DNA of 6,257 nucleotides from NCBI GenBank assembly GCA_021805885.1, contig JAJZDR010000026.1:1-6257 (forward strand), written 5' to 3'. The position numbers were made by a program, and so were the translations under genes. The DNA is from a bacterium. Its GTDB lineage: Bacteria > Patescibacteria > Dojkabacteria > JAKAPS01 > JAJZLI01. Numbering within the stretch: position 1 is the first letter of the stretch; each line of letters begins with the position of its first letter. Below are positions 1 through 6,257 of the stretch, in pieces. Under the pieces are notes generated by a model that worked only from the letters and a program-made list of their open reading frames with translations, had not been told where the DNA came from and searched no databases.

Positions 1-2947
1 TTGTTATATTCTCAAAATCATTCAAAGCAAGTATTCGGTTATTTTTAAAATATAAAACATATTTTTTTAGTGGATGATAGGTAACATAAATACCTAATAA
101 TTCTTTTTCCCATAGAGCTTTTTCTAAAGCAGATGATTCTTCAACGTCTGATAATGAGGTATATGGTATATCATCCTCATTGTCATCTTCAAAAAAACCA
201 ATTTGTCCAATTTTATTACTAATTTTTTTGTCATTATACAAAAGAACTATTTTATTATAGTCTTGGAGTAAAGCAGCCCTTTTACCAAAAGCATCCATTG
301 TACCAGATTTTATTAATACTTCAAAAGAAGTTTTATTAATAGCAGCAACATTTACTCTGTTACAAAAATCATCTAAAGATTTAAATTCACCACCTTCAGC
401 CCTAGCTTTTATAATTTCTTTAGAAGCTAAAGTTGCAAGTCCCTTTATACTATTTAGACCATATCTTATGTTATTATCTTCTATGTGGAATTCTGCAATA
501 CTTTTATTAATATCTGGTGGTAGTATTTTAATTTTTTTTCTTTCTGCTTCAAGAATAATTTCCGCTATTTTCTCTAAATTTCCAAGGTGTGATTGAAGTA
601 GTGCAGCTAAAAATTCTACGGGATAGTTAGCCTTTATATATGATGTTCTGTATGAAATAATTGAGTAGGATGCAGCATGTGCCTCATTAAATGCATAATG
701 AGCAAATGGCATAAATAGATCAAATAGTTTTTCTGCTATTTCCTTTTTCATACCATGTTCAATAAATCTGTCTATTAGGGAGTCTTTCATTGAAAGAAGT
801 ATCTCTGGTTTTTTCTTACCAGTAGCCTTTCTTAATTTATCAACCTCACCCCAATCAAATCCAGCAAGATTAATGGCTGTACGTAGTAGATCCTCTTGAT
901 AAACCATAACCCCATAACTTCTTTTTAGATAACTTTCCATCCTAGGATCGATATATTCTACTTTTTCTCTACCTTCCTTACGTGCAGCATAATGAGGTAT
1001 ATTAGCCATAGGCCCTGGTCTATTTAATGCTATAAGGGCAGATATATCAAATATATTTTCAGGTTTTAATATTTTTATGGCGTCCTTCATAATCCTAGAT
1101 TCTATCTGAAACACTCCAAGTGTATCTGCATCTTTTAACATTCTAAATGTTTTTTTATCATCAAGAGGAATGTTAGCAAAATCTACATCTTCATTCCTAT
1201 TTTCAAGTATGAGTCTTTGAGACTCTGAAATAATATCAAGGTTTGTTAATCCTAAAAAGTCCATCTTCATATATCCAAGTTCTTCTAATGTCACCATATT
1301 ATATTGACACACCAGTCTTTTTAGTTTTCTATCAAAAGATATAGGAACATGCTTATCCAAATTTTCTGGCGTAATTAAAACACCACAAGCATGTATAGAC
1401 GCATGTCTCGCTATACCTTCCATTCTTTGAGCTATATTTAACATATTAGAGATTGTAGGATCCTTCATTTCATCCTTAATCTCTGGAATCTTTTCTGTAG
1501 CTTCTTTAATTGTATATTCTCCCTGTGGTATTAATTTGGCAATTTTATCGACTGTATATAAAGGTACTTTTAAAACCCTACCTACATCTCTAATTGCAGC
1601 CCTTGCTTTCATCCTACCAAAAGTTACAATCTGAGAAACTCTATCATATCCATATTTAGATACTGCATAATTTAATACATCTTCTCTTCTTGCACTAGCT
1701 ATATCTAGATCTATATCGGGAGCTTTAGGTCTTAATGGGTTTAGAAATCTTTCAAAGGATAATCCGAAGATTAATGGGTTAATAGGTACTATTCCTATAA
1801 GGTATGCAACATAAGAACCTGCAGCAGAACCTCGGGTGGTAGTAGGAATATTCTCCCTAGATAAATAATCAGTAAAATCCGCAACCATAAGCATATATGA
1901 TGCAAAACCTTTTGATATTATAATATCAAGTTCATAATTTATTCTTTCAAGTTCATTTTCACTAAAATCTCTCTCTAGCTTTTCTTTACCTCTTTTAAAT
2001 ACTAAATCTTTTAGTCTAAGTCCAAAGTCTCCATTATAGCTTTTTGGAATCTTCAAATTTGGAAATATAAATCCATTAAATTTAATTTCAACATTACATC
2101 TATCTCTAATGATATTTGTATTCTCAATACACTCAGGGTGATCTTGCCAAAGTTCAATCATTTCTTCAGGACCTTTAACATAAAATTCATTTGACCCTAA
2201 TTTCAGCCTGTCATTATCATCAATGGTTTTTCCTGTTTCAATACATAACAAAACTTCATGAGCATAACTATCCTCTTTATCAAGATAATGAGAGTCACAT
2301 GTAGCAACTAAAGGTATATTTAGATCATTTCCCATTTTGAACAAGACTTCATTTACTTTATCTTGCTCCTTAATACCATTCCTTTGAACTTCAAGATAAA
2401 AATTAGATTGTCCAAATCCAGATTGTCCCAATCCAGATTGTCCAAATATCTCTATAAATTGTTCAGCATATCTATATGCCTCTTTAATATTCCCTTTTAA
2501 TATTTGCATTGGAATATCTCCACCAAGACATCCAGATAATGCAATAATACCTTTTGAATGAGATTTTAAAAACTCTATATCAGTCCTTGGTTTATAATAA
2601 AAACCATTAACACTTGCGTCAGACACTATTTTTATAAGATTCTTATATCCTTCCTCATTTTCCGCAAGAAGAGTGAGGTGACTATAGTTTTCATTCCTAC
2701 TGTGAGTTTTATCTTTTCTCGAACCAACGGCAAGATAAATTTCTACTCCTATTATTGCTTTTATATCATTTTTCTTACATTCATCATAAAATTCATGCGC
2801 TCCATATAACACCCCATGGTCTGTAATAGCACAACTTGTCATACCCAAATTTTTAACCTTTTTCACAAGTTTTTTAATACTACTCATCCCATCTAAAAGA
2901 GAGTATTCCGTATGTATATGTAAATGAGTAAAATCGTTTTTTTTCAT
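1..2947 (-). CDS. dnaE: DNA polymerase III subunit alpha, 3' end cut by window edge
   Basis: Replicative C-family DNA polymerase that extends primed DNA in the replisome. The frame is open from the ATG at 2947 to the window edge (982 codons); the family is usually about 1,050-1,170 residues, so only the C-terminal OB-fold/tau-binding part is missing. The N-terminal PHP domain (about 5-230) keeps HLHIH (H10, H12), TDHG (D43, H44), E69, H82, H90, C140 and D218-x-H220, suggesting an intact metal site. The palm has RGSAAGS (372-378), PDIDLD (D411, D413) and KMDFLG (D563), matching the three catalytic aspartates of E. coli DnaE (401, 403, 555). NRPGPM, YGVMVYQED and FNEAHAASY follow, then the helix-hairpin-helix region (LPPDIN, YGLNSIKGL) and a LLGIYVTYHPL segment. 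The start overlaps the upstream stop as ATGA and lacks a clear Shine-Dalgarno sequence, suggesting translational coupling. Residues 168-182 are a pentapeptide repeat insert. No intein is seen. The identification is secure. Confidence 0.97.
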   Translation of the reverse strand, partial: MKKNDFTHLHIHTEYSLLDGMSSIKKLVKKVKNLGMTSCAITDHGVLYGAHEFYDECKKNDIKAIIGVEIYLAVGSRKDKTHSRNENYSHLTLLAENEEGYKNLIKIVSDASVNGFYYKPRTDIEFLKSHSKGIIALSGCLGGDIPMQILKGNIKEAYRYAEQFIEIFGQSGLGQSGFGQSNFYLEVQRNGIKEQDKVNEVLFKMGNDLNIPLVATCDSHYLDKEDSYAHEVLLCIETGKTIDDNDRLKLGSNEFYVKGPEEMIELWQDHPECIENTNIIRDRCNVEIKFNGFIFPNLKIPKSYNGDFGLRLKDLVFKRGKEKLERDFSENELERINYELDIIISKGFASYMLMVADFTDYLSRENIPTTTRGSAAGSYVAYLIGIVPINPLIFGLSFERFLNPLRPKAPDIDLDIASARREDVLNYAVSKYGYDRVSQIVTFGRMKARAAIRDVGRVLKVPLYTVDKIAKLIPQGEYTIKEATEKIPEIKDEMKDPTISNMLNIAQRMEGIARHASIHACGVLITPENLDKHVPISFDRKLKRLVCQYNMVTLEELGYMKMDFLGLTNLDIISESQRLILENRNEDVDFANIPLDDKKTFRMLKDADTLGVFQIESRIMKDAIKILKPENIFDISALIALNRPGPMANIPHYAARKEGREKVEYIDPRMESYLKRSYGVMVYQEDLLRTAINLAGFDWGEVDKLRKATGKKKPEILLSMKDSLIDRFIEHGMKKEIAEKLFDLFMPFAHYAFNEAHAASYSIISYRTSYIKANYPVEFLAALLQSHLGNLEKIAEIILEAERKKIKILPPDINKSIAEFHIEDNNIRYGLNSIKGLATLASKEIIKARAEGGEFKSLDDFCNRVNVAAINKTSFEVLIKSGTMDAFGKRAALLQDYNKIVLLYNDKKISNKIGQIGFFEDDNEDDIPYTSLSDVEESSALEKALWEKELLGIYVTYHPLKKYVLYFKNNRILALNDFENIT
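2402..2446 (-). repeat. 15-bp x3 in-frame tandem array in dnaE (GQSGL/F type)
   Basis: Three 15-bp units at 2432-2446, 2417-2431 and 2402-2416 encode FGQSG, LGQSG and FGQSN (DnaE residues 168-182). The first two units differ at one base; the third diverges at its end. The coding strand contains CAATC-TG-GATTG, a perfect 5-2-5 inverted repeat, in phase with codons CAA TCT GGA TTG. The array lies where DnaE proteins usually pass directly from an EIFG-type turn into a FYLE strand, so about ten residues appear to be added in a PHP-domain loop. The loop position is judged from memory of the family, not from an alignment. Confidence 0.85.
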
Positions 2948-3489
2948 GAATTGATATATTTTTTAAATTCTTTATATAAGAATACAAAAATTTTATAAAC
3001 TACAAATAAATATACTAAAAGTAATATTATTTTAAATATATTTATAGCCCAAACCTCTATATTAAAAATGATTGTAACAGGCTCTAGATATAGATTTTTA
3101 TTCACAACCAGAGTTTCTTGATCAGAGTTAACATAGTTTGATCCCAAATTAGTATATGCTACTGCAGAAACACTTACATTATACACCCCAGAATTGTTTG
3201 GTAGTATCTCTATACTATTAAGGAGAGAAGAGCCTTTACTAACACTCGTCCAATACTGTATGAGTGATCCAGATTTCAAAAGTACACCAGAAGGTAAATC
3301 CCAAGTTATCTTAACTTCTTTAAAATTTTTCTCTGATTTTATCAAAGAAGAAAGACTTATGTAATTATTAAGAGGAGATTGTCCGTTAGTTGTTATTTTA
3401 ACATTAAAAAATGAATATGCGAATATAGGGGCTGAAAAAAATATCACAATAAGAGCTAATGAAATCATTGATATACCCAATTTCTGCAT
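2944..3489 (-). CDS. Hypothetical exported protein with C-terminal membrane anchor
   Basis: This 181-residue protein is of no family I can name. Residues 7-24 form a hydrophobic signal segment with a plausible signal peptidase site after IFA (A24). Residues about 27-135 are rich in alternating beta-type stretches, Ser, Asn and Thr (ITWDLPSGV, GVYNVSVSAVAY), resembling an Ig-like or CARDB/DUF11-type beta-sandwich. Residues about 149-172 are a strong membrane helix followed by a basic tail (KEFKKYIN). The predicted topology is therefore a short extracytoplasmic domain tethered by a C-terminal helix with its tail in the cytoplasm. The gene begins 54 bp after gatB and its TGA overlaps the dnaE ATG by four bases, so it probably shares a transcript with both. 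No Shine-Dalgarno sequence precedes its ATG; a leaderless start is possible. The function is unknown; the open frame, topology and tight packing support a real gene. Confidence 0.85.
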   Translation of the reverse strand: MQKLGISMISLALIVIFFSAPIFAYSFFNVKITTNGQSPLNNYISLSSLIKSEKNFKEVKITWDLPSGVLLKSGSLIQYWTSVSKGSSLLNSIEILPNNSGVYNVSVSAVAYTNLGSNYVNSDQETLVVNKNLYLEPVTIIFNIEVWAINIFKIILLLVYLFVVYKIFVFLYKEFKKYINS

Positions 3490-3495
3490 ATAAAG

Positions 3496-3524
3496 AATAT
3501 ATCAAAAATTCATCATATTTACAA
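3496..3524 (-). promoter_or_regulatory. Possible sigma-70-type promoter giving a leaderless mRNA
   Basis: In the 54-bp gap after gatB, the coding strand has TTGTAA (3519-3524; 4 of 6 to the -35 consensus), a 17-bp spacer and TATATT (3496-3501; 5 of 6 to the -10 consensus). Only six bases separate the -10 box from the ATG at 3489, so transcription would start at or beside the A of the start codon. No Shine-Dalgarno sequence is present, consistent with a leaderless message. In DNA this AT-rich, promoter-like matches arise by chance, so support is modest. Confidence 0.35.
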
Positions 3525-3543
3525 TTTAATATGGTTGATTTTA

Positions 3544-5058
3544 TTATATAGATTTTATCCTTTGAAGTAACTTTTCCTTTATAGCGTTTGGATCTCCTCT
3601 TCCTTTCATTTCCCTCATAACTTGCCCTATTAGATATGACAATATACCTTCTTTCCCAGACTTATATTTTAAAACTTCATCTTTATTATTATCTAGAATA
3701 GTTGATATAATAGTATCTATCATCCCATCATCACTAATTATAATATTATCATTTATCAATGCATCTAAATTCTTATTATCTACAATAACCTCTTTTAGGA
3801 TATCTTTTATTTTCAAAGATGACAGCTTCCCTTCATCTTCAAAATTCAGTAATATAGCTAAAATACCAGTCTTTATACTAGGTATGGTTTTACCTGATTC
3901 ATTTAAAAGGCCAATTATATATCCAGCTATCCAATTTGCAAGATTTGAAGGTGAACCTTTATATTTTAGAAGTTCACTCAAAAAATAATCATAGTACAAT
4001 CTATCTTCTACAATAGTATTAGCAACATTCCCTCCTATTTTATATTTATCCTCTAATATTTTTAACGCCTCATCTGGCAGTACTCCTACACTCAAGGTTG
4101 CATCATCTATAAATTTCTTACCAAGATACAAAGGGGGCAGATCAGGTTCTGGAAAATATCTATAGTCGTTACTCTCTTCTTTATTCCTCTGAAAAAATGT
4201 TTTAGAAAGATTGTCGTTCCAGCCTCTTGTTACTTTATTACCAGCCTTAGCAACTTCATTATTCTTTTTAAACTCATCTAACTGTCTTTCCTCCTCATAC
4301 TTGGTTGCCCTCTCTAAAGCTCTAAAAGAATTAAGATTTTTAACTTCAACAATAGGAGTTCTATATTCTTTGGTTCCAGAACCCCAGGTTCCAGAACCCA
4401 AGGTTCCAGAATCGTTTCCCTTTTTTATAATTTTCAAATTTACATTTAAATCAAACCTCATCTGACCTTTTTCCATATCACAGTCTGATGCTTGTATAAA
4501 TCTAACAATGTTATAAATCTTTTTAGCATATTCTTTTGCTTCTTCACTAGACTCCATATCGGGATAAGAAACAATCTCCAATAATGGAACACCGGCTTTA
4601 TTGCCATCAAGAAGTGTGTGGTCATTATAATGAGTAGATTTTGCAGTATCTTCCTCCATATGAGCCCTCAGAATCCTTATCTTCTTGGATCTTGATCCAT
4701 TGGGTCTAGAGCCATTTTCTTCACCATCCATATTTATGTATACATAACCTTCAGTTGTTATTGGGAATTCAAATTGGGTGATTTGATAACCTTTAAAAAG
4801 ATCTGGATACATATAATTTTTTCTATCAAATCTAGACTTACTATTTATATTTAGATTTAAAGCTCTTCCAACCCTAATAGCTTGTTTTATTGCTTCTTTA
4901 TTAATCACAGGTAATGCCCCAGGAAGTCCCAAACAAACGGGACACATATGAGAATTTGGGGTATCGTTAAAGTATTCAGAGGAACAAGAACAAAACATTT
5001 TAGATTTTGTTTTTAATTGCACATGTATTTCGAGTCCTATGATTGTTTTTACTTCCAT
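3544..5058 (-). CDS. gatB: Asp-tRNA(Asn)/Glu-tRNA(Gln) amidotransferase subunit B
   Basis: Subunit of the GatCAB complex. It phosphorylates the side chain of misacylated Glu- or Asp-tRNA and amidates it with ammonia supplied by GatA. From the ATG at 5058 it has 504 residues, slightly above the usual 475-490, the excess being explained by two repeat inserts. The N-terminal cradle domain shows GLEIHVQL, the signature CPVCLGLPGALPV (41-51 region), FDRKNYMYPDL, KGYQI, RAHMEED and VEVKNLNSF. C23/C25 and C39/C42 form a CxC...CxxC set that could bind structural zinc. SNDYRYFPEPDLPPL follows, and the C-terminal YqeY-like tRNA-binding tail carries GKEGILSYLIGQVMREMKGRGDP. An ATG at 5073 would add five residues, but the 5058 ATG is preferred: GGGAG lies eight bases upstream, and MEVKTIIGLEIH fits the usual GatB start. 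Overlap with gatA is 10 bp (25 bp with the alternative start). The gene ends in tandem TAA stops (3541-3546). Confidence 0.97.
   Translation of the reverse strand: MEVKTIIGLEIHVQLKTKSKMFCSCSSEYFNDTPNSHMCPVCLGLPGALPVINKEAIKQAIRVGRALNLNINSKSRFDRKNYMYPDLFKGYQITQFEFPITTEGYVYINMDGEENGSRPNGSRSKKIRILRAHMEEDTAKSTHYNDHTLLDGNKAGVPLLEIVSYPDMESSEEAKEYAKKIYNIVRFIQASDCDMEKGQMRFDLNVNLKIIKKGNDSGTLGSGTWGSGTKEYRTPIVEVKNLNSFRALERATKYEEERQLDEFKKNNEVAKAGNKVTRGWNDNLSKTFFQRNKEESNDYRYFPEPDLPPLYLGKKFIDDATLSVGVLPDEALKILEDKYKIGGNVANTIVEDRLYYDYFLSELLKYKGSPSNLANWIAGYIIGLLNESGKTIPSIKTGILAILLNFEDEGKLSSLKIKDILKEVIVDNKNLDALINDNIIISDDGMIDTIISTILDNNKDEVLKYKSGKEGILSYLIGQVMREMKGRGDPNAIKEKLLQRIKSI
4369..4413 (-). repeat. 15-bp x3 in-frame tandem array in gatB (SGT type)
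   Basis: Three units (4399-4413, 4384-4398, 4369-4383) encode DSGTL, GSGTW and GSGTK, GatB residues 216-230. Each has the core TCTGGAACC. In units two and three GGTTC-TG-GAACC is a perfect 5-2-5 inverted repeat followed by a variable codon (TGG, AAA); the first unit has one arm mismatch. The array is about 51% G+C by count, richer than the surrounding sequence. It sits between NLKIIKKG and KEYRTPIVEVKNLNSF, where GatB normally has a short hairpin loop, so it is probably surface exposed. Confidence 0.9.
4687..4716 (-). repeat. 15-bp x2 in-frame tandem array in gatB (NGSRP type)
   Basis: Two units (4702-4716 and 4687-4701) encode NGSRP and NGSRS, GatB residues 115-124. On the plus strand they read GGATC-TT-GATCC-ATT (perfect 5-2-5 inverted repeat) and GGGTC-TA-GAGCC-ATT (one arm mismatch). 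It lies between YVYINMDGEE and SKKIRILRAHMEED, a turn where GatB usually has only a few residues. The two units share 11 of 15 bases, so the duplication is older or less conserved than the SGT array in the same gene. Confidence 0.75.
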
Positions 5059-6257
5059 CTTGTTGGCTCCCATAATTTTTGCTCTATAAGATTAGCTAAC
5101 GAGAGTATTGTACTCTCATCAAAAGATCTACCCATAATCTGAAGTCCAGTAGGTAACTTGTTATAATATCCATTTGGTATGGATATAGCTGGTATCCCTG
5201 CAATATTAGAAGACACTGTAAAAATATCAGACAAATACATACTCAAAGGATTTTCTATTTTCTTTCCGATCTCAAAAGCGACAGATGGAGTAGTAGGGGA
5301 GATAATAACATCAACATCTAAAAATGCATTCTTAATCTCTTGTTTTATAATATTTCTTACCTTTAGAGCTTTATTAAAATATGCATCATAATATCCGGAA
5401 GACAATGTATATGTTCCTATTATTATTCTTCTTTTAACCTCATCTTCAAACTTAGATCTAGCTTCAGCATAAAAATCATTTAATGACTCAAAACTATTAT
5501 CTTTAGATTTTGATGGTTGGCTCCCACTTGGGTGGCTCCCACCTGGGTGGCTTCCGCCTGGATGGTATCCAAACCTAATTCCATCATATCGTGCTAAATT
5601 AGCACTTATCTCCGATGGAACAAGAATGTAATATACAGCTAAAGAATACTTTAAATGAGGCAAATCAATTGTTTTTACGCTACAACCTAAAGATTCTATA
5701 GTTTTAATACTATTTTCAAAGGCATCTATTACATCAGCATCAACTCCCTCTTTTGAAAAATTCAAAACTCCAACTTTCAACCCTTTAATATCTCTAAATT
5801 TTGTATAATCTTGTTTTTCAACCTTTATAGAAGTCGAATCTTTTTTATCATATTTTGCAATTTCACCAAGAACATATGCACTATCATACACATTTCTAGC
5901 TATGACTCCAGGAGTATCAAAAGATGAACCCATTGCTATAAGACCATATCTAGAACATAACCCATATGTTGGTTTCAATCCTACCACTCCACAAAAAGAC
6001 GCAGGCTGCCTCACTGAACCTCCAGTGTCAGTCCCTATCCCAAATAATGCAGAACCAGAAGCTACCGCTGCTGCAACACCACCACTAGAACCTCCTGCAA
6101 CCCTTTTTGTATCTAATGGGTTATGGGTAACTCCATACCCAGAGTTTTCAGTAGATGATCCAAAAGCAAAAGCATCCATGTTGCCTTTTCCAATTAGTGT
6201 AAAATCAGACAAATTGGAAACTACTGAAGCAGAGTAGGGGGATATGTAGTTTTCGAG
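5049..6257 (-). CDS. gatA: Asp-tRNA(Asn)/Glu-tRNA(Gln) amidotransferase subunit A, 5' end cut by window edge
   Basis: Glutaminase subunit of GatCAB: it releases ammonia from glutamine (or asparagine) and passes it to GatB. The frame is open to the right edge, giving 402 visible residues; the family has about 475-490, so roughly 80-95 N-terminal residues, including the catalytic Lys of the Ser-cisSer-Lys triad, lie outside. The visible start LENYISPYSASVV matches the family's LENFxxPYDATVV region. Counting from the edge, GGSSGG (about 56-60) carries the cis-Ser and DTGGSVRQPA (S81) the nucleophile, followed by FCGVVGLKPTYG. VKRRIIIGTYTLSSGYYDAY, SPTTPSVAF, MYLSDIFTVSSNIAGIPAISIP and LPTGLQIMGRSFDE complete the amidase-signature fold. 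The common GGSSGGS is GGSSGGV here. An internal TTG at 6212 is not the true start, because conserved sequence continues upstream. A four-unit repeat insert follows GIRFGY. The 3' end overlaps gatB. Confidence 0.96.
   Translation of the reverse strand, partial: LENYISPYSASVVSNLSDFTLIGKGNMDAFAFGSSTENSGYGVTHNPLDTKRVAGGSSGGVAAAVASGSALFGIGTDTGGSVRQPASFCGVVGLKPTYGLCSRYGLIAMGSSFDTPGVIARNVYDSAYVLGEIAKYDKKDSTSIKVEKQDYTKFRDIKGLKVGVLNFSKEGVDADVIDAFENSIKTIESLGCSVKTIDLPHLKYSLAVYYILVPSEISANLARYDGIRFGYHPGGSHPGGSHPSGSQPSKSKDNSFESLNDFYAEARSKFEDEVKRRIIIGTYTLSSGYYDAYFNKALKVRNIIKQEIKNAFLDVDVIISPTTPSVAFEIGKKIENPLSMYLSDIFTVSSNIAGIPAISIPNGYYNKLPTGLQIMGRSFDESTILSLANLIEQKLWEPTRWK
5067..5071 (-). promoter_or_regulatory. 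Shine-Dalgarno sequence of gatB, inside the gatA 3' end
   Basis: GGGAG on the coding strand is eight bases upstream of the ATG at 5058. It overlaps the alternative ATG at 5073 (reads ATGGGAG), for which only a weak AGAG lies upstream. This decides the start in favour of 5058 and places initiation of gatB within the last codons of gatA, as expected for coupled synthesis of the two subunits. Confidence 0.7.
5505..5564 (-). repeat. 15-bp x4 in-frame tandem array in gatA (HPGGS type)
   Basis: Four units (5550-5564, 5535-5549, 5520-5534, 5505-5519) encode HPGGS, HPGGS, HPSGS and the degenerate QPSKS. The first three are 31/45 G+C (69%), strikingly above the AT-rich gene. On the plus strand GGTGG-CTC-CCACC is a perfect 5-3-5 inverted repeat, and CCACC-CA-GGTGG occurs on the coding strand. 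The HPGGS units differ at synonymous positions (GGC/GGT, GGA/GGG, CAT/CAC). The array lies between YDGIRFGY and the DFYAEARSKFEDEVKRRI segment, a loop of variable length in GatA. Confidence 0.92.

What the first reader, a model, noticed from the sequence alone, without database searches (positions are those of the whole stretch)
2402..5564. A family of in-frame, palindromic 15-bp minisatellites inserted in three different housekeeping genes
Four arrays (2402-2446 in dnaE, 4369-4413 and 4687-4716 in gatB, 5505-5564 in gatA) all have exactly 15-bp units, two to four copies, Gly/Ser-rich pentapeptide products and at least one unit with a perfect 5-bp inverted repeat around a 2-3 bp centre. In dnaE and both gatB arrays the palindrome is in the same codon phase and centred on TCTGGA, TCTAGA or TCAAGA, giving a shared x-S-G/R-x peptide core. 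Arm sequences differ between arrays while the palindromic layout is kept, so this is not simple copying of one sequence. Four such arrays in about 3 kb of essential genes, all at apparent loop positions, is far beyond normal. It suggests a mechanism (hairpin-assisted slippage, or a tiny spreading element) tolerated because unit length is a multiple of three. Rickettsia palindromic elements are a conceptual precedent, but those are much longer. I do not know of a description of this class.
Basis: partly seen in the sequence, partly recalled or inferred. Interest (0 to 1): 0.82.

Follow-up and report, generated by a model that had tools for sequence, protein, structure and literature searches.

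The report
Genome-wide palindromic 15-bp repeats in genes
A lineage of uncultured small-genome bacteria carries, in dozens of genes including core ones such as DNA polymerase, short tandem repeats of a tiny DNA palindrome, probably made by a lineage-specific copying error that reading-frame selection trims to multiples of three bases.

Summary
The four arrays are real and lie where stated. They are recent: against an 85.7%-identical relative (YP4.bin81, L001) every indel above 1 bp in 6.1 kb is an insertion in the window of 15, 30 or 45 bp. The relative's own 769-kb genome (G001) carries the same thing elsewhere: 33 GC-filtered period-15 arrays, 24 with a 5-2-5 palindrome (1.1 expected); arrays of this layout lie in uvrC, recJ, ruvX, tsaD, an IMPDH gene, a class I tRNA synthetase gene and rsmH. 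Samples of five more distant relatives and of other lineages held no palindromic period-15 array. Arm sequence changes while pairing is kept. In ORFs the palindromic unit is 15 bp (35 of 35 arrays); outside it is mostly 14 bp (5 of 7; Fisher 2.5e-5). So the unit is a 12-bp palindrome plus a 2-3 bp linker, and 15 is what the reading frame lets through. Most likely this is a lineage-specific mutational process: a short palindrome appears singly, then multiplies by hairpin-assisted slippage and template switching. Mechanism is inferred; a tiny spreading element is the main rival.

The parts
2402..2446 (-). dnaE array, three 15-bp units (GQSGL GQSGF GQSNF); perfect palindrome at 2429-2440; 30 bp longer than in L001
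4369..4413 (-). gatB array nearer the middle of the gene, three units (SGTLG SGTWG SGTKE); palindromes at 4372-4383 and 4387-4398; 30 bp longer than in L001, 15 residues longer than in L002-L005
4687..4716 (-). gatB array nearer the gene's start, two units (NGSRP NGSRS); palindrome at 4687-4698; 15 bp longer than in L001, which has one imperfect unit
5505..5564 (-). gatA array (HPGGS HPGGS HPSGS and a degenerate unit); palindrome 5-2-5 at 5539-5550, 5-3-5 at 5531-5543; 45 bp longer than in L001
5059..5073 (-). 15-bp insertion at the gatA end / gatB start, absent from L001; not palindromic; GatB of sister P0002 also has 5 extra residues here
2..2947 (-). dnaE (DNA polymerase III alpha, runs off the window)
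3544..5073 (-). gatB
5049..6257 (-). gatA (runs off the window)

Best explanation
This is a lineage-specific, genome-wide mutational process that makes tandem palindromic minisatellites. The unit is a 12-bp palindrome (5-bp arm, 2-bp centre, 5-bp arm; usually G at the outer end and C at the inner end of the left arm, commonest arm GGATC) followed by a 2-3 bp linker. Shown: arrays are insertions relative to relatives, units occur singly and in arrays, arms keep their pairing while their sequence differs between arrays, and the period is 15 bp in ORFs but mostly 14 bp outside. Inferred: the exposed single strand folds into 5-bp hairpins (2-nt loops within and 3-nt loops between units), the polymerase slips or switches template there, which copies one arm onto the other and adds units, and selection keeps only in-frame, loop-located, hydrophilic results.
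For: Every indel above 1 bp against L001 is 15n (5 of 5). Period 15 stands out among periods 11-30 in G001: 48 arrays (31 with GC at least 35%) against 2 at 13 and 0-3 at 16-20. 24 of 33 arrays palindromic against 1.1 permuted. Arm pairing 151 of 189 cells against 100.6 +- 4.5 shuffled; in the 14 arrays without GGATC arms 64 of 93 against 34.5 +- 3.9. In ORFs 35 arrays of 15 bp and 0 of 14; outside 2 and 5. 13 of 13 palindromic arrays with a spanning relative are net insertions of 10-31 residues. Five members of the lineage differ in units of RsmH. Coding phase of GGATCNNGATCC is 34/0/9 (phases 0, 1, 2), the missing phase coding I-x-I. Single-strand DNA folding beats shuffles in 4 of 6 arrays tested, z -2.6 to -3.3. 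In gatA the arm CCATC(CA) looks partly native: HP stands there in L001-L006 without the array.
Against: Within arrays, neighbouring units that differ at an arm pair are mostly broken (24) and rarely doubly compensated (5), so arm correction is not seen in action. The GGATC arm recurs across the genome and some whole 15-mers at 3-6 places, and RsmH of G001 gained one GSGSK unit where four sisters have none; local folding alone does not supply that sequence. Two of six folded arrays (window 4687-4716 and 5505-5564) do not fold clearly better than shuffles. MutS and exonuclease VII genes are present in all six genomes searched, so their loss does not explain the restriction. Not every period-15 array is palindromic (9 of 33 are not).
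Confidence: 0.55

Rival explanations
1. A very small mobile DNA element: a 12-bp palindrome inserted in trans by an unidentified enzyme, perhaps with a 3-bp target duplication (12 + 3 = 15), later multiplied by slippage.
For: GGATCNNGATCC at 67.6 per Mb in G001 against 0 in 0.71 Mb of relatives and 3.9 in other loci; 22 single copies, 9 of them outside ORFs (18 by a stricter rule); GGATCTGGATCCACA at three distant places; single-unit gains of 5 residues; flanking 3-mers of 18 single copies match directly in 27 of 54 positions against 20.7 +- 2.7, p 0.017.
Against: Many different arm sequences, so no fixed element; arrays outside ORFs are mostly 14 bp; no Y1 transposase or reverse transcriptase match in G001; five of the six copies of the commonest 15-mer lie within 3 kb of each other, which suits local copying; the flank signal is one of eight tests.
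Confidence: 0.25
2. Selection on proteins for flexible Gly/Ser loops, the DNA palindrome being a by-product of GGA TCT GGA TCC codons, with ordinary slippage.
For: Peptides are often GSGSK-like; phase 0 dominates; GatB arrays sit in predicted loops.
Against: The same palindromes occur outside ORFs, denser than in them (9 single copies in about 55 kb against 43 copies in about 714 kb), and as 14-bp arrays; other frames give DLDPK and HPDGS with the palindrome kept.
Confidence: 0.07
3. Binding sites for a nucleoid, regulatory or restriction-modification protein, copied as arrays.
For: Dyad symmetry with a frequent TCNNGA core.
Against: Arms vary widely, most copies are inside genes, copy number is low (52 GGATCNNGATCC in 769 kb).
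Confidence: 0.06
4. Assembly artefact or chance.
For: The window and its near relatives are, as far as their titles tell, assemblies of metagenomes.
Against: Same layout in the window and in G001, which are different assemblies; one identical G001 RsmH sequence is listed on 4 contigs from three sources, though these may share raw reads; controls empty.
Confidence: 0.02

Closest known systems
Rickettsia palindromic elements (RPE)
   Same: Palindromic DNA inserted in frame in unrelated protein genes
   Different: About 150 bp in ten families, each coding a conserved peptide (PMC10969869, passages seen); here 12-15 bp, often tandem, arms variable
PARCELs of Mollicutes and others
   Same: Intragenic tandem repeats with dyad symmetry, variable number
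   Different: 25-residue amphipathic motif in ORFs that are not recognisable housekeeping genes (PMC2996958, abstract and first part of one section seen); here 5 residues, hydrophilic, core genes included
Quasipalindrome-associated template switching
   Same: Makes and repairs short inverted repeats and homogenises arms (PMC8604942 and PMC8794818, abstracts seen, plus the opening of the second); the first treats coding DNA
   Different: Described there as scattered events, not as arrays of one unit length across one genome
Short palindromic repeats of Volvox organelle genomes
   Same: Lineage-specific proliferation of short hairpins, 11-79 nt (PMC2670323, passages seen)
   Different: In the mitochondrial genome confined to intergenic and intronic DNA apart from one rRNA module, loops usually 3-5 nt; here mainly inside genes
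REP elements
   Same: Dispersed small palindromes
   Different: 20-40 bp, extragenic, tagged at one end (PMC3733652, search listing only); the link to Y1 (RAYT) transposases is recalled; no Y1 match in G001
Bacterial minisatellites (VNTR)
   Same: Short tandem units differing in number between relatives
   Different: Here one unit length and one palindromic layout recur genome-wide

Membership tests
Rickettsia palindromic elements | element of about 150 bp coding a family-wide peptide | tested here: not met
   unit 12-15 bp, arms variable
Rickettsia palindromic elements | in-frame insertion in unrelated genes | tested here: met
PARCEL | 25-residue amphipathic repeat | tested here: not met
   5-residue units, mostly hydrophilic
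REP/RAYT | 20-40 bp palindrome with a Y1 (RAYT) transposase in the genome (the second part recalled) | tested here: not met
   12-bp palindrome; PF01797 0 matches in G001
Minisatellite / VNTR | tandem units whose number differs between relatives | tested here: met
Minisatellite / VNTR | unit number varies within a species | not tested
   no strain set held
Template-switch product | arms covary so that pairing is kept | tested here: met
Template-switch product | observed single-event arm homogenisation between parent and descendant | tested here: inconclusive
   5 double changes against 24 breaking ones between neighbouring units

The most novel reading that the evidence does not exclude
The smallest self-spreading DNA known: a 12-bp palindrome that inserts singly into genes and intergenic DNA of one bacterial lineage, remodels its arms from local sequence, and multiplies in tandem, so that dozens of genes, core ones among them, carry it.
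Probability: 0.28. Interest if true: 0.9.

Novelty: new variant of a known kind. Interest (0 to 1): 0.74.

Why it matters
It is a natural experiment in how new protein segments arise: one DNA-level process adds 5-residue steps to many genes of one small genome, core ones included, and the 14-bp / 15-bp contrast separates mutation from selection. It makes hairpin-driven insertion in bacteria testable by comparing strains, and it warns that length differences in marker proteins such as DnaE, GatA and GatB can come from this process.

Tried and rejected
Chance was rejected by the column-permutation control, with weaker help from codon shuffles. A unit length fixed by the mechanism at 15 was rejected by the 14-bp arrays outside ORFs. 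Y1 transposase, reverse transcriptase, and loss of MutS or exonuclease VII gave no lead. Rfam at gathering scores found nothing in four 20-kb pieces of G001, three of which hold a period-15 array outside ORFs. Density along the contigs against GC skew in 20-kb bins, judged by eye, is uneven but shows no clear origin or terminus link. Pattern GATCNNGATCNNNNNGATCNNGATC: 14 sites in G001, 0 in the other 84 class genomes and 0 in the other 378 phylum genomes drawn, two sets that overlap; it is specific to GATC arms and cannot exclude other arms elsewhere. An earlier count said 14/14 palindromic insertions; recounting searches gives 13 of 13. Finding that five of six copies of the commonest 15-mer are neighbours lowered my mobile-element odds from 0.28 to 0.25 and the novel case from 0.30 to 0.28.

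Full report
Setting. No whole genome is held for the window. Its proteins place it among Patescibacteria-like MAGs: GatB best hits after the window itself are P0002 and P0003 at 83% identity, then a group near 59%, and DnaE hits at about 50% include Dojkabacteria. The closest held genome is that of L001, MAG YP4.bin81, handle G001, two contigs of 287,075 and 482,043 bp, taken whole in pieces.

Observation. The four arrays are present as described. Aligning the window with L001 over 6,121 shared positions (5,243 identical) leaves six gaps, all in L001: 45, 15, 15, 30 and 30 bp in coding DNA and one of 1 bp between genes. Four are the arrays; the fifth is a non-palindromic 15-bp insertion at the gatA/gatB junction, where GatB of sister P0002 also has 5 extra residues. 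L001-L006 lack the dnaE and gatA insertions. At gatB 4369-4413 L002-L005 are 5 residues shorter than L001 and 15 shorter than the window, so a single 15-bp step probably came first and the window then gained two more. The gatB 4687-4716 site is a generally variable loop: L006 is 10 residues longer there than the window. In the GatB model, mean pLDDT 81, the two arrays (residues 114-125 and 214-230 of P0001) lie mostly in unstructured stretches between strands with pLDDT under 50 in places; no other protein was modelled.

The same thing across a genome. In G001 the count of tandem arrays by period falls from 393 at 9 and 48 at 10, where chance matches are common, but stands out again at 15: 48 arrays (31 with GC at least 35%), against 22 (1) at 11, 25 (8) at 12, 2 (0) at 13, 23 (7) at 14, 3 (0) at 16 and 0-2 at 17-20. 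Of 33 arrays with GC at least 33%, 24 hold a perfect 5-2-5 palindrome; 1.1 are expected when the columns of the unit are permuted. At a looser cut 37 of 66 do, 2.2 expected. Genome-wide, 5-2-5 palindromes number 445 against 316.7 (sd 14.4) after codon shuffling; other loop lengths also tend to exceed shuffles (ratios 0.95-1.29), so the excess is concentrated rather than unique. The arm GGATC stands out, 52 copies of GGATCNNGATCC against 9.3. Other arms are CCATC, GCATC, GGTAC, GAGTC, GAATC, GGGTC, GGAGC and GGGAC. Of 20 proteins scanned (of 62 with an array or single unit), 16 had a Pfam match, among them UvrC, a Mur ligase, EPSP synthase, TsaD, IMPDH, RuvX, a class I tRNA synthetase, RecJ and RsmH. 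In 710 kb sampled from G002-G006 there were 2 period-15 arrays and in 1.3 Mb of other loci 17, none palindromic; GGATCNNGATCC stood at 0 and 3.9 per Mb against 67.6 in G001.

Insertion test. 20 arrays and 2 single units of G001 had a relative's match spanning the site in the 710 kb held; the other sites could not be judged. All 13 arrays with a 5-2-5 palindrome are net insertions in G001 (10-31 residues). Of the 7 without, four are insertions (10, 15, 16, 20) and three are not (0, 0, -2). The two single units gave +2 and +5. Identities are 23-67%, so lengths are approximate. Within the lineage, five RsmH proteins show steps present or absent and in different numbers at several sites, for example one GSGSK after the second codon in G001 only, and one to four IYT steps at another; some length differences there are not multiples of five. 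Only G001's RsmH DNA was seen.

Pairing is kept, sequence is not. Taking arrays in register by the inner TCNNGA only (29 of 66 arrays qualify, 63 units), the three outer positions pair in 151 of 189 cells, against 100.6 +- 4.5 when partners are shuffled (maximum 118) and 22-64 when partners are slid by 1 or 2. One unit per array gives 69 of 87 on average against 46.6 +- 3.5. The 14 arrays without GGATC arms give 64 of 93 against 34.5 +- 3.9. Against a simple correction model, differences between neighbouring units are broken pairs in 24 cases and double changes in 5.

Reading frame. Palindromic arrays inside ORFs: 35 of period 15, none of 14. Outside: 2 of 15, 5 of 14; Fisher p = 2.5e-5; periods 13, 16 and 17 gave none. 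One of the two outside arrays of 15 may lie in a small ORF, which would sharpen the contrast; ORFs were called mechanically at 70 codons or more. Spacing of neighbouring palindromes agrees: in ORFs 24 of 38 pairs are at 15, 30 or 45; outside 16 of 21 are at multiples of 7 and 1 at 15. Coding GGATCNNGATCC copies are 34 in phase 0, 9 in phase 2 and 0 in phase 1, the phase that would code I-x-I; single copies are enriched outside ORFs, 9 of 22 in about 7% of the genome. So the process acts on DNA regardless of coding, and selection on proteins filters it.

Mechanism. Hairpin-driven slippage with template switching accounts for tandem growth, kept pairing, variable arms, 14/15 flexibility and the seemingly local arm in gatA. 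It does not by itself explain why GGATC recurs at distant places (GGATCTGGATCCACA at C1 80,719, C2 3,239 and C2 328,143), nor why it is seen in one lineage only. The commonest 15-mer, however, is mostly local: five of its six copies lie at C2 1.7-4.5 kb. A tiny mobile element would explain spread, with a weak sign of a 3-bp flank repeat (p 0.017, one of eight tests, 18 copies), but not 14-bp arrays and varied arms. No Y1 transposase or reverse transcriptase match was found in G001, and MutS and exonuclease VII are present in all six genomes searched. That two-base loops closed by C-G are stable in DNA, and that polymerases can elongate short hairpins into palindromic repeats in vitro, is recalled and comes from no call.

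Known work. Ten searches of the held library, some listing only 6-12 of many hits, showed no paper whose listing describes such arrays in this group; subscription papers and preprints are mostly not held, so this is not proof of absence. RPEs, PARCELs, Volvox repeats and template-switch studies are the nearest; none is met in full.

Noticed in passing
window 5062-5072 and 5516-5526: The non-palindromic 15-bp insertion at the gatA/gatB junction shares the 11-mer TGGGAGCCAAC (minus strand) with the end of the gatA array about 450 bp away; chance or ectopic copying.
   Followed up: partly
window 2944-3489: 181-aa ORF with hydrophobic stretches at both ends, no Pfam match at E 0.001, between dnaE and gatB.
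   Followed up: no
L139:11998-13905 (G001 C2): A 635-aa ORF with three separate period-15 arrays (about 6, 4 and 2 units), one a run of KDLNP/KDLDP-like units.
   Followed up: no
G001 C1 0-120 kb and C2 400-482 kb: No 5-2-5 palindromic arrays in these stretches, while C1 240-287 kb and C2 0-20 kb are dense (7 and 5): strong regional unevenness.
   Followed up: partly
P0242-P0245 (RsmH of sister lineages): IYT-containing pentapeptide steps in one to four copies at one site, suggesting a 15-bp array with quite different sequence; DNA not seen.
   Followed up: partly
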